6,008 nt of DNA from positions 1 through 6,008 of the forward strand of contig JAFGVM010000095.1 of NCBI GenBank assembly GCA_016937995.1, read 5' to 3'. Under the pieces are notes generated by a model that saw nothing but the letters and a program-made list of their open reading frames with translations, was not told where the DNA came from and did no database searches. The position numbers and the translations under genes were made by a program. Every line of letters begins with the position of its first letter. Within the stretch, counting starts at the first letter, position 1. This document shows positions 383 to 5,905 of the stretch, piece by piece. This stretch comes from Candidatus Delongbacteria bacterium. GTDB lineage: Bacteria; UBA4055.

Positions 383-1687
383 TTATTCTACTTCTAATAT
401 GCTTTTTAATTTTGAGAGGTTTAACTCAATATCTTCTACATCAACAAAAAACAAATTTACAGTCGTCCCATCACCGCTTTCAAATTTTATATGACTCGTG
501 TTTCTCATTTCGTCATTAATGGGATACAATAACCATATTTCTGCTGTTTCATATTTTTTGGAATAAGCATACATCTGATACATATCACTTTGAGAAATTC
601 CATAATTTGCTCTTTCATTATTAATAAGATTTTTCCACTTAGTATCCAGAATTATTGTTCGATCATTCTTTCTAAGAACAATATCCGGTCTTAATGCAAA
701 TTGTCTTCTCGGCTCAACAAACAGATAATGTCCTTTATCTTGGCTTGATATCTCCCAGCCACTTGGACGAAATACTTTTTTCATTTGTTGGGCTACATAA
801 CTTTCATAAACACTTTCCATAGGAAACAGTAACGCCCTTGATGTTGTATTGCCAGAAAACGTAGTAAAACTCTTATTCATAAGAAATACTTTTGACCATT
901 GAATTAACATTTCATAATCTTTTGTACTCCTATCTATAACAACTTTAGAAAAATCCTTCTGATAATCTGCAGATGATTCAACCAGCTCAAAAGCAGTAAG
1001 TAACTGTCTTATTTCTTTTGAGTTTTCTGCACTCGTAGTTATCTTCTGGAGTTTCTCTAAAGTTGACTTCACTAGCTTATTTTCTGGCCTATTCATTAAG
1101 AACTCTTCATACCCTACATAAAAACGTTCTTTATGCACTAAATTGTTGCGTAAATGCTGTCCTACGAGAAGCTTTCCCTTGTAATACCGCAGATTATCCT
1201 CTTGTGAAATATACGCTGACTTAATGCCTCGTTTCACCAAATGTCGAACTTCCTGAAGATACATATTGATAAAAATTTCGTATAGATTCATATGATCTAT
1301 TTTAAGACTGGCATCATTAAACACCTTACTTGGAAAGTCTTTCATACTACGTAACATTCGCAGAAAGACTCTCTTAGTCTTAACATTTCCTGGATCATCT
1401 CCATCACCAAATGAAATCTTTGGAAGAACTTGTACCTGAAACCCATCCTTCATCTGAATTAGACCAACATAATTCTTGATGGTGATTGTCTCACCAACGT
1501 TCCTTCGATAACCTATACGCATAAAATCCAATACATCTGCATTTTCTTTACTTCCTGAAAATTCATAGATAAACGTTTCTAGGTTATCAAATTCCTTTTT
1601 AATGAGGTGCTTATATTTATTTTCATTTTTATAATCACTATTGCAGATAATTGAATCATATTCTTTTATCTCAAACGGTTTACCCAT
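383..1687 (-). CDS. mcrC: McrC-family nuclease subunit of a type IV restriction system
   Basis: This 434-residue cytoplasmic protein is the probable DNA-cutting partner of the McrB protein upstream. In the family, McrC binds the McrB GTPase ring through its N-terminal part, stimulates GTP hydrolysis and carries a C-terminal PD-(D/E)XK nuclease. Visible family marks are VGLIQMKDGFQVQVLPKI (74-91), GKLLVGQHLRNN (171-182), the RxxNK-type stretch around 200-204, and the nuclease core RPD (333-335) followed by ILDTKWK (346-352). D335, D348 and K350 are the likely catalytic residues; DMYQMYAY (368-375) and WLLYP (385-389) complete the usual C-terminus. E. coli McrC is 348 residues, so this one is longer, mainly before the nuclease. 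The ATG is preceded by GGTGAG five bases upstream. The gap to mcrB is 16 bases with no promoter room, so the pair is presumably cotranscribed. No frameshift or lost catalytic residue is seen. Confidence 0.93.
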   Translation of the reverse strand: MGKPFEIKEYDSIICNSDYKNENKYKHLIKKEFDNLETFIYEFSGSKENADVLDFMRIGYRRNVGETITIKNYVGLIQMKDGFQVQVLPKISFGDGDDPGNVKTKRVFLRMLRSMKDFPSKVFNDASLKIDHMNLYEIFINMYLQEVRHLVKRGIKSAYISQEDNLRYYKGKLLVGQHLRNNLVHKERFYVGYEEFLMNRPENKLVKSTLEKLQKITTSAENSKEIRQLLTAFELVESSADYQKDFSKVVIDRSTKDYEMLIQWSKVFLMNKSFTTFSGNTTSRALLFPMESVYESYVAQQMKKVFRPSGWEISSQDKGHYLFVEPRRQFALRPDIVLRKNDRTIILDTKWKNLINNERANYGISQSDMYQMYAYSKKYETAEIWLLYPINDEMRNTSHIKFESGDGTTVNLFFVDVEDIELNLSKLKSILEVE

Positions 1688-1703: not shown

Positions 1704-4700
1704 TTACAGTATCTCGATATAGCTTTGAATATTGGACAGGGCTTCTTTATTAATAGAGTATCTCTTTTCTGGCAAATCTATAATATCTTCAACATTACCC
1801 TTGAAAATATTCTTTGCAACCACTTTTTCATCTTTTATAAATTTCAAATCAGAATTTTCTTTACCATCATCACCCAGGACCATCTGGATTTTCTGGTAGT
1901 CTTCATAAAAGTACTCCTGTAGTAAAGGAATTACTGATTTTTCAAAAATACATTTCAAACGTTCAATTGAAGCATCATCCTTTAAATCTGTAAAAAATGC
2001 ATGGCCAATTGTATGTTCTCTATCATATAAGAAACCAATTCTTTCATTGATTACATCAAGCATATCTGCTACATTTAGATCTCCAACCTTGTCTGCTCCT
2101 ATTAAACGTAATACGTCCGTTTCAGGCATCATTTCTATAAAGCTAAATCTTCTTCTTAGTGCCGTGTCCATCAGAGCAATGGATCTATCAGCAGTATTCA
2201 TTGTTCCAAGTATATAAACATTTTTAGGGATACTAAAAGGATTCCCTGAATAAGGTAGTATAGCTTCAGTAGCTTCTGGCATTCCTTCTCGCTTTGTACA
2301 CTCTAAAAGGGTAATCAATTCACCAAAGATTTTTGATATATTGCCTCTATTAATTTCATCAATTACAAATACATATGGTTTCTCATTTTGCTCAATTTCA
2401 GTGTTATATAGATCAGAATTATATTTTTTTGCTAAGGAGACGATGTCGCTTACCTGCATGACTGGAACACGAGCAACGGTCATCCTATGCAACATCCTAT
2501 TCATATTAATGTCTTTTATATCTTCATCTATATGTGTTGCTAGCCACATTACATCTCTTGTAGTTGCATCATCTTCGCTATCAAGTGAATATGCTTCATC
2601 TTTAGTGATAAAGGCAATACCATTTATCTTACTTCTCGACCCGTCTGTGGTTATAATAATGTCACCAAGTTTCATGTCATTAACAAATGCTGAAGCACCT
2701 TTACTCTCTATCCCCCAATCGATACGTACACGATTATTCTTAAAGCAGTCTTCGCTTACAGAATTACGCACTGTTGCTTTCCAAACCGATGCATCTTCTG
2801 GTATATCAAATTTATCCATTTTCACTTTTAATTTCTTTGCAGTTTCACAGAATTTTTTAAATATGCCTGGTGCAACCTTATAAGATACATCTCCGCTACC
2901 ATCAGAACGTTCATCTGAGATAACAGGTTTAATACCTTCAATAAACTCTTCGTACCCATATGATTGATGGAATGTAGTAAACACAATGCGTTGCTCATTC
3001 TTTAACTCGTTGTAACGTTTCATAACAGCATCATAATCGGTTAATTCATCCAAAGACTTATTGTCACAAATTGCAACTGCATATATAGCGGAATGATATG
3101 TTTTCCCTGTTCCAGGAGGTCCATATAGTATTAGATTTTTGTCATATACAATATCTTTAACTTCCAAACTTGTTAAATCAATTTTTGATAAATCCATCTC
3201 TTCTAATGCCTCCTTTAGCTCATCCCTAAGCTTCCATGAATATCTATTATTTCCATCTTCTTTCACATGTCTTCCGACAAAAGGAATTGGAAAATATCTA
3301 TTCTCTTCTCCATCAGGAAATGGCGTGACATGTTCGATTGTATCTACAATTTTTTTCGCGAAATTACTTCCTCTCATATTATATGACGAAGCAGTTCTTC
3401 CATATTTTTTTGCAAGATTGGAGCATGTTGATTCTCCGCCCTCAAGAAGCATACACTTGAACATTTTCAAATCTTCTTTACTACTGATTTCTTCGTTTAA
3501 TAAAATATTTAACCATTCTTCTTTACTAATGTTTGGGTTATATTCTTCTAAACTTGGCCAGTATGTTACGTTTTCAATTCCAAGAACATGCTCATAGTAA
3601 GGAATCAATGCTTCAACAGCCTCAAGCATTACATTTTCATAGTCATCATTAGTGAACACATCCACCCATTCTTGAACTCTACAAAGCTTAACTTTTTTAT
3701 ATACACCATTAGTAATTTTGTGCTTTATATCCTCTACAGATTCATTTAGAACTCTTGTTGAACCAAGTTCACCGTTTCCTGAAACAAAAGCAAGGGTGTT
3801 TTCTGGATCAACTGGCAAGTCCAAAAAACTATGGTATTTTTTCATCTGATCCTTATCAGAATTTTCATTCTTTATTTCCAAACTAAAACGATACCTACTC
3901 TTATTAGTTTCGTCAGACAGCTCCACAAAGATTGAGACACTAATAGGGTTATTCGCATACTGTCCATATTTCATCTGGGCCCATAAATAGTTTCTTGTTT
4001 TTGTGTTTGATCCGTCAAGCCATGACATCGTTTCACATTTATCTAACCCAAACAGTTCGTTACAAATAGCAACCATTTTTTTCATTTCAGCTACTGCAGC
4101 CTGCCCTTTACTTTTCAAATTTAGTAAACGTTGTTTTTCTGTCTCTTCAACCCCTGGAGCTTCAGGGTTTGAATAAGGAATATCTCGGTTGTTATCCAAA
4201 TAATCAAGAACGCCAATATAATCAATATCTGTCTGTGAGTATCCTTTACCTAAATTCCAAGCAGCCATGTCAAAAATTCTATAGTTTTTTATAGGAAATA
4301 TTTCGTCTCTATATTTTTTTACTTGGCGACAGTTCCTTATATAAGTATGCACTTCTGTTTTCTTATCTAAATCAACGCCTAGATACACATATATATTGTC
4401 AGAGCCCATGTTGCTATTGAAAATCGGAAATGTAAACGGCTTTAAGCAGTGTAATACCATTGATGCAGATGCGGCTTTCATGCCTCGATATTTTTTATCC
4501 AGCACTTTTTCAAATCTATCGAAAATCTGCTCATCATCTTCCATGTCAAGAATGTCTACACAGGCTTTAATGAATTTTGAGGGAGAAGTATTATCCGTTT
4601 TTCCTTTAAATGAAAAAAAACCAGTCCCAAACATTCCAAAAGACCCATCACTATTTGTATACTCTCTGCTTTGAGCTCTTTCCCAAATAACATCAAGCAA

Positions 4701-5354
4701 AGACTTAAGTTTCTCTTTAGCTTCTTCAGGAAGATTACTTAAGTCAACAATTTTTTTCTTCGACAAAACTTTATGCTTCCATGTCCCTATCGTCATAAGA
4801 TAAACAAGATTTAAATCATTGTAATCACAAATACTTAGATCTCCCAGTTCTGCATATGATCTTATGGTTTCTTTAACAAGTTCATAAGTACCATCGTGCT
4901 TATAAGGATCCATTTCTTCAGAAGCTCTTAATTTTTGAATCAAGTCCATATATGTTTTCAATTGTATTGGAAGTCGTATTGGACCCTGTGGTGAAGAGAA
5001 TCCATAACTCTCTAATATTTTTCGAGAAAATAATTTTTCTGGAAATTCCTCTATCATTTCTAGTTCCATGTATCTTCCATAAGTTCCGTCAAATTCCCCT
5101 GAAATGTTAAATTTACTATCATCAATATCCAGCTCTTTTATATTGACTTTATTTGCTCTACATTTAAAACGCACCGCCTGAATAGCATCAGAAACATAAA
5201 TATAAACAATATCGCCTTCAGAAACATTCGTACTCTGCTTCCAATCTATTTTTCCTAGTTCAAGAAAAGCACCAATGACATCATACTTTTTCGGATTCCC
5301 TGGAATAATCCATTCCGTTATTGCCTTCTCCTTAATGACCACATCATGGTTCAT
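1704..5354 (-). CDS. mcrB: Large multi-domain McrB-type GTPase with EVE-like modules
   Basis: This 1216-residue protein is the probable DNA-recognition and GTP-driven motor subunit of a McrBC-type restriction system. Regions in order: an N-terminal PUA/EVE-like module (about 11-110; WIIPGNPKKYDVIGAF, then EGDIVYIYV); a helical region (about 150-380) with SASMVLHCLKPFTFPI; an unassigned alpha/beta region (about 420-595); a possible winged-helix region (about 611-714; GGESTCSNLAKKYG); and the AAA+ GTPase (about 735-1216). The GTPase has Walker A GPPGTGKT (745-752), TTFHQSYGYEEFIEG, Walker B VFVIDEINRGN (995-1005), the McrB signature MNTADRS (1052-1058), ALRRRF (1065-1070) and IGHAFF. A second EVE-like segment (about 855-964; VWKATVRN, VRIDWG, MKLGDIIIT, VMWLA) interrupts it between the Walker motifs. 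E. coli McrB has only 459 residues. The frame extends six codons upstream to a TTG, but AAAAGAGGT lies inside that extension, six bases before this ATG. The GTPase call is firm; the folds of the middle regions are inferred. Confidence 0.93.
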   Translation of the reverse strand: MNHDVVIKEKAITEWIIPGNPKKYDVIGAFLELGKIDWKQSTNVSEGDIVYIYVSDAIQAVRFKCRANKVNIKELDIDDSKFNISGEFDGTYGRYMELEMIEEFPEKLFSRKILESYGFSSPQGPIRLPIQLKTYMDLIQKLRASEEMDPYKHDGTYELVKETIRSYAELGDLSICDYNDLNLVYLMTIGTWKHKVLSKKKIVDLSNLPEEAKEKLKSLLDVIWERAQSREYTNSDGSFGMFGTGFFSFKGKTDNTSPSKFIKACVDILDMEDDEQIFDRFEKVLDKKYRGMKAASASMVLHCLKPFTFPIFNSNMGSDNIYVYLGVDLDKKTEVHTYIRNCRQVKKYRDEIFPIKNYRIFDMAAWNLGKGYSQTDIDYIGVLDYLDNNRDIPYSNPEAPGVEETEKQRLLNLKSKGQAAVAEMKKMVAICNELFGLDKCETMSWLDGSNTKTRNYLWAQMKYGQYANNPISVSIFVELSDETNKSRYRFSLEIKNENSDKDQMKKYHSFLDLPVDPENTLAFVSGNGELGSTRVLNESVEDIKHKITNGVYKKVKLCRVQEWVDVFTNDDYENVMLEAVEALIPYYEHVLGIENVTYWPSLEEYNPNISKEEWLNILLNEEISSKEDLKMFKCMLLEGGESTCSNLAKKYGRTASSYNMRGSNFAKKIVDTIEHVTPFPDGEENRYFPIPFVGRHVKEDGNNRYSWKLRDELKEALEEMDLSKIDLTSLEVKDIVYDKNLILYGPPGTGKTYHSAIYAVAICDNKSLDELTDYDAVMKRYNELKNEQRIVFTTFHQSYGYEEFIEGIKPVISDERSDGSGDVSYKVAPGIFKKFCETAKKLKVKMDKFDIPEDASVWKATVRNSVSEDCFKNNRVRIDWGIESKGASAFVNDMKLGDIIITTDGSRSKINGIAFITKDEAYSLDSEDDATTRDVMWLATHIDEDIKDINMNRMLHRMTVARVPVMQVSDIVSLAKKYNSDLYNTEIEQNEKPYVFVIDEINRGNISKIFGELITLLECTKREGMPEATEAILPYSGNPFSIPKNVYILGTMNTADRSIALMDTALRRRFSFIEMMPETDVLRLIGADKVGDLNVADMLDVINERIGFLYDREHTIGHAFFTDLKDDASIERLKCIFEKSVIPLLQEYFYEDYQKIQMVLGDDGKENSDLKFIKDEKVVAKNIFKGNVEDIIDLPEKRYSINKEALSNIQSYIEIL

Positions 5355-5464: not shown

Positions 5465-5659
5465 TCACTCATTCACCAATTTGAAGTTCTTTAAGTGCAT
5501 CTGTAAAAGTGTCCTTTGTAAAGGGCTCTCGTTATACTCATCCCACAACGAAAGTGCTTCTTCATCTTCCCATAATTTTGTATAGGCTTTCAATCCATCT
5601 GATAGTTCTACCACATAGCTCCAGTAGTCGCCAAAGTAGCCTTCTGGGCTAATCATCAT
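5465..5659 (-). CDS. Small acidic protein of unknown function
   Basis: I do not recognise this 64-residue protein. It is acidic (12 Asp/Glu against 5 Lys/Arg) and rich in aromatic residues (GYFGDYWSYV near the start, then a Trp/Glu/Asp-rich centre). It has no signal peptide, membrane segment or metal-binding cysteines. The central and C-terminal part looks helical. Support for it being a real gene is the strong AAAGGAGA ribosome binding site nine bases before the first ATG, and tight coupling to the regulator: the gap is 15 bases and the binding site overlaps the xre stop codon. A second in-frame ATG follows immediately, with poorer spacing. It may be a partner or modulator of the XRE protein, or an accessory of the restriction system; neither can be shown from sequence. 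Confidence 0.7.
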   Translation of the reverse strand: MMISPEGYFGDYWSYVVELSDGLKAYTKLWEDEEALSLWDEYNESPLQRTLLQMHLKNFKLVNE

Positions 5660-5668
5660 ATTAGACCG

Positions 5669-5676
5669 TCTCCTTT
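5669..5676 (-). promoter_or_regulatory. Ribosome binding site overlapping the xre stop
   Basis: The minus strand reads AAAGGAGA. Its first A residues belong to the TAA stop of the xre gene (5675-5677). This arrangement suggests translational coupling between the regulator and the small gene downstream. Confidence 0.75.
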
Positions 5677-5899
5677 ACTCGCTTCCTATCTTTATTTCCT
5701 TGCCATCAGATAGAATAAAAGTCTGTTCAAACTTAACATCCATCACTTCTGCTATGGCCTTAAGTTCTTCTAAGGTAATCGTCTCACGCTTTAGCTTCTT
5801 CCCGAAGTTTTGTGGAGACTGGCCTATCCTTCTGGCCAATTCGGAAACGCTAATATTCATTTGTTCACACAACTGTCTTATCATATCAGAAGTTTTCAT
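5675..5899 (-). CDS. XRE-family helix-turn-helix transcriptional regulator
   Basis: This 74-residue DNA-binding protein is a Cro/C1-type regulator. Helix 2 is SVSELARRIG (17-26) and the recognition helix is about SPQNFGKKLK (28-37), followed by ITLEELKAIAEVMDV (41-55), the usual fourth and fifth helices. The tail FEQTFILSDGKEIKIG looks like the beta-hairpin found at the end of many short Firmicute XRE proteins. The open frame extends to a TTG at 5920, but GGAGGG sits six bases before the ATG at 5899, so the shorter form is preferred. An inverted repeat 22 bases upstream of the start (5921-5947) is a likely autoregulatory operator. The gene heads a pair with the small gene at 5465-5659, and mcrBC follows in the same direction. 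It may control the restriction genes, in the manner of restriction-modification controller proteins, but this is an inference. Confidence 0.88.
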   Translation of the reverse strand: MKTSDMIRQLCEQMNISVSELARRIGQSPQNFGKKLKRETITLEELKAIAEVMDVKFEQTFILSDGKEIKIGSE

Positions 5900-5905
5900 A
5901 ATGAT

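What the first reader, a model, noticed from the sequence alone, without database searches (positions are those of the whole stretch)
1704..5354. McrB with several stacked candidate DNA-reading modules
The protein places an EVE-like module, a helical region, an unassigned alpha/beta region and a possible winged-helix region before the GTPase, and has another EVE-like segment inside the GTPase. E. coli McrB has one N-terminal reader domain. EVE/PUA-like folds are known readers of modified bases, so this enzyme may recognise an unusual modification, two modifications, or a modification in a sequence context. Related multi-domain McrB proteins exist in Firmicutes, so the novelty may lie in the exact combination.
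Basis: partly seen in the sequence, partly recalled or inferred. Interest (0 to 1): 0.7.

Follow-up and report, generated by a model that had tools for sequence, protein, structure and literature searches.

The report
McrBC restriction enzyme with stacked DNA-reader modules
This gene pair is a McrBC-type restriction system whose motor protein carries four reader-like modules in front of the motor and one more EVE/YTH-fold module inside it; it is an elaborate, mobile variant of a known anti-phage system, and it could be a test case for how such systems read more than one DNA mark.

Summary
Window 1704-5354 (-) encodes a 1216-aa McrB, followed by an McrC gene (383-1687). AlphaFold models (mean pLDDT 90 and 87) and fold searches show: residues 11-144, a PUA-superfamily EVE/ASCH/YTH-like fold; 145-370, a helical module with no secure assignment; 374-594, a YktB/DUF1054-like fold; 607-704, winged-helix-like topology; 705-1216, a McrB AAA+ GTPase with intact Walker A, Walker B and NxxD motifs.

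It is less singular than suggested. The inserted domain is near-universal among the closest 80 genomic relatives, mostly Firmicutes, and a 2024 census already reported specificity-type inserts in McrB GTPases. The N-terminal modules shuffle freely. The full four-module set recurs in Peptostreptococcus russellii (88% identity), a metagenomic contig (91%) and [Clostridium] polysaccharolyticum.

[quoted passage not shown] Which modification it reads, and whether both EVE-like domains bind bases, is untested. New variant of a known kind; moderate interest.

The parts
1704..5354 (-). mcrB, 1216 aa (residue r starts at 5354-3(r-1)); complete ORF
   Evidence: PDB McrB matches; Pfam AAA_5
4923..5324 (-). 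Module E: N-terminal EVE/ASCH/YTH-like (PUA superfamily) domain, residues 11-144
   Evidence: AF2 model; VIA-align Z 12.2 ZmASCH, 10.9 2eve, 10.5 THYN1 with 5mC DNA; same module at the N-terminus of HNH endonucleases
4245..4922 (-). Module H: all-helical domain, residues 145-370; HhH-like hairpin around RGMKAASASMVLHCL (residues about 291-305); fold not securely assigned
   Evidence: AF2 model; conserved in 9 genomic relatives (A3); weak Pfam DUF6308 0.0022; Foldseek 3knt prob 0.44; hhalign to HhH glycosylases not significant
3573..4235 (-). Module Y: alpha/beta domain with YktB/DUF1054-like fold, residues 374-594
   Evidence: VIA-align Z 13.5 over 191 residues to 2a8e and Z 10.7 to 3mqz; relatives hit DUF1054 (0.0058) and HI_0552 (9e-5) weakly; hhalign to DUF1054 P 0.0026, probability 11%
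3243..3536 (-). Module W: winged-helix-like domain, residues 607-704
   Evidence: predicted order helix-strand-helix-helix-hairpin; Foldseek ArsR-type repressor 6uvu prob 0.77; conserved GGESTC..LA.KYG..YN / FVGR / YSWKLR motifs
1707..3242 (-). McrB AAA+ GTPase, residues 705-1216
   Evidence: AF2 model; VIA-align Z 26.2 to 6ut5 (Thermococcus McrBC) and 20.8 to 6ut6 (E. coli)
3099..3122 (-). Walker A GPPGTGKT, residues 745-752
   Evidence: sequence; alignment
2418..2792 (-). Inserted EVE/YTH-like domain, residues 855-979, between helix 2 and the Walker B strand
   Evidence: beta-alpha-beta-alpha-beta4 order in the model; VIA-align Z 10.7 to PH1033 (1wmm) and 10.7 to the YTHDC1 YTH-m6A complex (6rt4); EVE is the most frequent Pfam hit among relatives' inserts, best 0.0031
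2346..2375 (-). Walker B strand YVFVIDEINR, residues 994-1003
   Evidence: sequence; alignment
2187..2198 (-). McrB signature NxxD (NTAD), residues 1053-1056
   Evidence: sequence; conserved MNTADR
383..1687 (-). mcrC, 434 aa, with RPDIV...ILDTKWK nuclease-type motif; start 16 bases after the mcrB stop
   Evidence: Pfam McrBC 3.8e-95; sequence

Best explanation
[quoted passage not shown] Shown by sequence and model: a McrB GTPase with intact nucleotide-binding motifs and its McrC nuclease partner. In front of the motor lie an EVE/ASCH/YTH-like domain, a helical domain, a YktB-like domain and a winged-helix-like domain, and a second EVE/YTH-like domain is inserted in the GTPase. Inferred: McrB assembles into a GTP-dependent hexamer that recruits McrC. 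The N-terminal EVE-like domain is the primary reader of a modified base by base flipping, as in EVE-HNH enzymes. The winged helix and perhaps the helical and YktB-like modules add DNA affinity or sequence context. The inserted EVE-like domain, carried six times on the ring, either reads a second base or senses DNA to gate GTP hydrolysis. DNA carrying the right marks triggers translocation and cleavage by McrC.
For: McrB and McrC identity. Confident models. PUA-like folds at both places. The same N-terminal module is fused to HNH nucleases, as expected of a modified-base sensor. The insert is facultative yet strongly constrained where present: W858, C870, G897, D898, R933 and W937 are invariant in 36 divergent inserts, but it is absent in near relatives L090 and L094. 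Module shuffling. On a GTPase tree the four-module set of the window and L048 and that of L049 lie in different parts. In L049 the E and H modules are 61% and 51% identical to the window's while the Y module is only 23%. Mobility: serine recombinases next to the system in L015, L048 and L049 (by eye in the ORFs).
Against: No specificity or activity data. EVE assignments rest on fold similarity: the window's own segments do not reach Pfam's EVE cut-off. A PUA-like fold alone does not prove modified-base binding; ASCH relatives include enzymes (PMC11037411). Sequence profiles do not link the winged helix to DpnI-type readers. The window is the whole 6008-base contig, so its wider context is unknown.
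Confidence: 0.75

Rival explanations
1. The inserted EVE-like domain is not a reader but a structural or assembly element of the GTPase ring, for example holding McrC or neighbouring subunits, and only the N-terminal part reads DNA.
For: It sits inside the AAA+ core beside Walker B and is near-universal in the close clade whatever the N-terminal modules, more like a fixed part than a swapped specificity module.
Against: It has been lost or never gained in close relatives with otherwise similar proteins (L090, L094); the characterised E. coli and Thermococcus McrB GTPases have no such insert in the PDB alignments; its fold matches base-binding YTH and EVE structures.
Confidence: 0.35
2. The system recognises a specific unmodified sequence, as McrB-like LlaJI does, with a methyltransferase elsewhere protecting the host, so it is not modification-dependent.
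For: LlaJI, a site-specific R-M cassette, uses a McrB-like subunit (PMC1459862, title and abstract listed; detail from general knowledge); PADLOC's best hits are Type II REase models; a type I RM operon with an N6-methyltransferase follows the system in L049.
Against: No methyltransferase in the window; the system occurs in other loci without an obvious one next to it (ORFs of L015, L048, L129, only partly scanned); EVE-like modules are typical of modification-dependent enzymes (PMC7641849).
Confidence: 0.12
3. The four N-terminal modules are mostly spacers or oligomerisation domains and only one reads DNA.
For: Relatives exist with any subset of the modules, and many have none of them.
Against: Modules keep conserved aromatic and charged residues and recur in other contexts, such as E with HNH nucleases.
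Confidence: 0.3

Closest known systems
Peptostreptococcus russellii RT-10B McrBC (L048) and IMG/VR contig 3300037608_000238 (L015)
   Same: Same gene order and all modules; McrB 88-91% identical over full length
   Different: Only sequence divergence; also uncharacterised
[Clostridium] polysaccharolyticum McrB (L049) and viral-contig McrB L129
   Same: Same module order with the GTPase insert
   Different: L049's Y module is only 23% identical; L129 lacks the winged-helix module; their GTPases lie elsewhere on the tree
E. coli K-12 McrBC
   Same: McrB GTPase with NxxD motif and McrC partner
   Different: One N-terminal ADAM/DUF3578 reader, no GTPase insert
Thermococcus gammatolerans McrB
   Same: PUA-superfamily (YTH-like, 6mA-binding) reader on a McrB GTPase (PMC7641849, citing Hosford 2020)
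   Different: Single N-terminal reader, no insert in the PDB-aligned GTPase
EVE-HNH and other PUA-fusion endonucleases (e.g. VcaM4I, PMC7897488)
   Same: PUA-superfamily sensor; HNH endonucleases on Firmicutes plasmids carry the same N-terminal E module (35-42% identity)
   Different: Nuclease fused in one protein, no GTPase
NTD-wH-NTPase/McrC fusions of PMC11037411
   Same: Winged-helix domain before a McrB-like NTPase with a McrC partner
   Different: In the passages read, described without an EVE-like insert or this module set; their activity was not measured

Membership tests
McrBC Type IV restriction system | McrB-type AAA+ GTPase with Walker A, Walker B and NxxD signature | tested here: met
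   GPPGTGKT, DEINR and MNTADR present; PDB McrB 1e-53; fold Z 26.2
McrBC Type IV restriction system | Adjacent McrC with DUF2357 and PD-(D/E)xK nuclease | tested here: met
   Pfam McrBC (PF10117) 3.8e-95 across residues 69-389; motif RPDIV...ILDTKWK; DUF2357 was not scored separately
McrBC Type IV restriction system | Cleaves modified DNA in a GTP-dependent way | not testable with these tools
   needs biochemistry or phage challenge
EVE/PUA superfamily (N-terminal module, 11-144) | EVE/ASCH/YTH-like beta-barrel fold | tested here: met
   predicted model; Z 12.2 ZmASCH, 10.9 2eve, 10.5 THYN1-5mC DNA
EVE/PUA superfamily (N-terminal module, 11-144) | Pfam EVE profile match at the curated cut-off | tested here: not met
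   no hit for the window; one of nine relatives at 0.0012; so it is EVE-like by fold, not a Pfam EVE member
EVE/PUA superfamily (GTPase insert, 855-979) | EVE/YTH-like fold with beta-alpha-beta-alpha-beta4 order | tested here: met
EVE/PUA superfamily (GTPase insert, 855-979) | Pfam EVE profile match at the curated cut-off | tested here: not met
   window 13.8 bits against cut-off 23; 6 of 36 relatives hit EVE, best 0.0031
EVE/PUA superfamily (both modules) | Modified-base pocket that binds a flipped base | not testable with these tools
   aromatic residues conserved, but pocket geometry and ligand were not tested
YktB/DUF1054 fold (374-594) | Same fold as YktB | tested here: met
   Z 13.5 over 191 residues to 2a8e
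YktB/DUF1054 fold (374-594) | Sequence-profile homology | tested here: inconclusive
   hhalign P 0.0026 but probability 11%; relatives hit DUF1054 at 0.0058
ADAM/DUF3578 (McrB-N) | Profile or sequence similarity to the E. coli McrB N-terminal domain | tested here: inconclusive
   no hit to it in Pfam scans; hhalign against a single E. coli sequence recalled from memory, probability 0.2, has low power; PF12102 gave no hit in any control genome
DpnI-type winged-helix 6mA reader (607-704) | wHTH topology | tested here: met
   predicted secondary-structure order; Foldseek wHTH repressor 6uvu prob 0.77
DpnI-type winged-helix 6mA reader (607-704) | Sequence similarity to DpnI wH or its 6mA motif | tested here: inconclusive
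   profile search of PDB sequences gave no DpnI hit
HhH-GPD DNA glycosylase fold (145-370) | HhH-GPD profile similarity and fold | tested here: inconclusive
   Foldseek 3knt prob 0.44; hhalign not significant
CoCoNuT McrBC branch | NxD (not NxxD) signature in the GTPase | tested here: not met
   residues 1053-1056 read NTAD, an NxxD; branch definition from PMC11090510

The most novel reading that the evidence does not exclude
The two EVE/YTH-fold domains read different marks, or the same mark at two sites, as a two-key check: the N-terminal one selects the DNA and the one inside the motor licenses GTP hydrolysis. The helical module is a DNA-glycosylase-like (HhH) fold reused as a further base reader.
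Probability: 0.12. Interest if true: 0.75.

Novelty: new variant of a known kind. Interest (0 to 1): 0.42.

Why it matters
McrBC systems are very common anti-phage nucleases, but how specificity is encoded outside E. coli and Thermococcus is little known. This family gives a natural series (same motor, different reader sets; insert present or absent) in which the role of each module, and of a reader-type domain inside the motor, can be tested by module swaps. It also links YktB/DUF1054-like domains, for which I found no functional study in the library, to DNA restriction.

Tried and rejected
Pfam, NCBIfam and PADLOC scans of the whole protein do not resolve the N-terminal modules. Profile searches of PDB sequences with modules E, H, insert, Y and W gave no significant match; only fold comparison helped. 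HhH-glycosylase idea for the helical module: the motif lines up by eye and in hhalign, but scores equal unrelated controls, so it is left as a lead. No HhH glycosylase was shown among the VIA-align rows, which EVE/YTH folds filled. ADAM/DUF3578 for the Y module: no support, test weak. CoCoNuT branch: excluded by the NxxD motif. Assembly contamination: base composition fits the rest of the genome (34% against 31-38% GC), so not indicated, although the contig is only 6008 bases. A viral-contig scan with the E module alone found no relative other than the 91% contig. Slip: the module slices were taken from a gapped copy of the protein, so the ADAM, WH and GTPase labels there are shifted; boundaries given here come.

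Full report
What is there. The window is a whole contig of 6008 bases. On the minus strand it holds mcrB (1704-5354, 1216 aa), mcrC (383-1687, 434 aa), a small ORF (5465-5659) and a short Cro/CI-type regulator (5675-5902). McrB identity rests on PDB matches to Thermococcus and E. coli McrB, the NCBIfam McrB model as a partial match, and Walker A, Walker B and MNTADR motifs. McrC identity is Pfam McrBC at 3.8e-95. The NTAD motif is an NxxD, so the protein is outside the NxD branch that holds the CoCoNuTs (PMC11090510).

Modules. Relatives from a genome scan (560 relatives, best 80 kept) and viral contigs were aligned. Sequences carrying only some modules gave consistent edges: E about 1-135, H 135-357, Y 374-607, W 607-704, then the GTPase. 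Two AlphaFold2 jobs used alignments of 64 and 75 sequences: residues 1-735 with mean pLDDT 90.2 and 702-1216 with 87.0.

Folds. E (11-144) matches ASCH, EVE and YTH structures: ZmASCH Z 12.2, 2eve Z 10.9, human THYN1 with 5mC DNA Z 10.5 (Foldseek agrees). The same module, at 35-42% identity, heads HNH endonucleases on Staphylococcus, Tepidibacter, Psychrobacillus and Lactococcus plasmids, which suits a sensor of modified DNA. Y (374-594) matches Bacillus subtilis YktB (2a8e, Z 13.5 over 191 residues) and a DUF1054 protein (3mqz, Z 10.7); sequence support is weak but in the same direction. W shows a winged-helix order of elements, with an ArsR-type repressor as a Foldseek match. H is helical; Pfam DUF6308 at 0.0022 and a Foldseek match to an 8-oxoguanine glycosylase at probability 0.44 are only leads, and profile comparison with glycosylases was not significant.

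The insert. In the GTPase model, residues 855-979 form a beta-alpha-beta-alpha-beta4 domain. This is the order that PMC7641849 gives for EVE. It matches PH1033 and the YTHDC1 YTH-m6A complex, both Z 10.7. EVE is the most frequent Pfam hit among 36 relatives' inserts, with a best E-value of 0.0031. Six residues are invariant in those 36 (W858, C870, G897, D898, R933, W937). The distance between the conserved FHQ-Y-E-F and DEINR motifs is 41-57 residues without and 182-235 with the insert (one outlier, L067, at 28). L090 and L094, close to the window on the GTPase tree, lack it. The second McrB in the same genome (contig 73) has an intermediate distance of 159 and a Pfam EVE domain (6.9e-16) in its N-terminal part, so the genome carries two different McrBC systems.

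How unusual. The insert is the rule in this clade, not the exception, and reaches plasmid McrBs of Klebsiella, Deinococcus and Pseudoalteromonas. The 80 genomic relatives were ranked by similarity to the window protein, so this share is biased upwards; among viral-contig relatives many lack the insert. PMC11090510 already states that McrB GTPases frequently contain inserts that likely encode specificity domains. PMC7641849 reports EVE-McrB as the most common defence architecture of EVE, often with additional domains. PMC11037411 reports winged helix-NTPase fusions with McrC that were not assayed. The exact module set E-H-Y-W plus insert was found in the window, L048 and L015/L028 (one lineage), and L049; L129 has it without W. 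On a GTPase tree (quick search, SH-aLRT support only) L048 with the window, L049 and L129 fall in different places, and L049 shares E and H (61% and 51%) but hardly Y (23%). I read this as recombination of reader modules onto related motors; an alternative is ancestral presence with repeated loss (the parsimony counts for Y and W, 18 and 19 changes, also include detection failures at the blastp cut-off).

Mechanism. Shown: parts, order, folds (predicted) and conservation. Inferred from established McrBC biology: GTP-dependent hexamer, DNA translocation, cleavage by McrC. Inferred and unproven: modified-base reading by the N-terminal EVE-like domain (likely), by the inserted domain (about even), and contributions of the H, Y and W modules. 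Nothing here tells which modification is read.

Mobility. Near-identical systems in Peptostreptococcus russellii (88%) and in a metagenome contig filed as viral (91%), absence from the 12 other genomes of the same order held, and serine recombinases beside the system in L015, L048 and L049 (by eye in the ORFs) point to horizontal spread.

Verdict. A real, well-supported multi-reader McrBC. It is a new variant of a known kind; the interest lies in the combination, in the YktB-like module, and in the motor-embedded EVE-like domain as something testable.

Noticed in passing
L182 1279-7125 (same genome, contig 73): A second, different McrBC system: McrB of 1151 aa with a clear Pfam EVE domain (6.9e-16) and another, shorter GTPase insert (159 residues between motifs), then a gene with a RhuM-like N-terminus (by eye), then McrC.
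   Followed up: partly
window 5675-5902: Short Cro/CI-type helix-turn-helix gene upstream of mcrB on the same strand, possibly its regulator.
   Followed up: no
L015, L048, L049: Serine recombinase genes lie next to the McrBC system, suggesting a mobile element that carries it.
   Followed up: partly
L049 8688-13242: A type I restriction-modification operon (HsdM, HsdS, and probably HsdR) follows the McrBC genes.
   Followed up: no
L015 4361-5821: A 487-aa ORF with a long run of GYDRD repeats upstream of mcrB, then a leucine-rich-like region.
   Followed up: no
L086 (Niallia endozanthoxylica McrB): Winged-helix module lies before the YktB-like module, the reverse of the usual order.
   Followed up: no
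L129 3599-8171: McrBC with EVE-like, helical and YktB-like modules plus the GTPase insert, but no winged helix, on a 41.7-kb contig filed as viral.
   Followed up: partly
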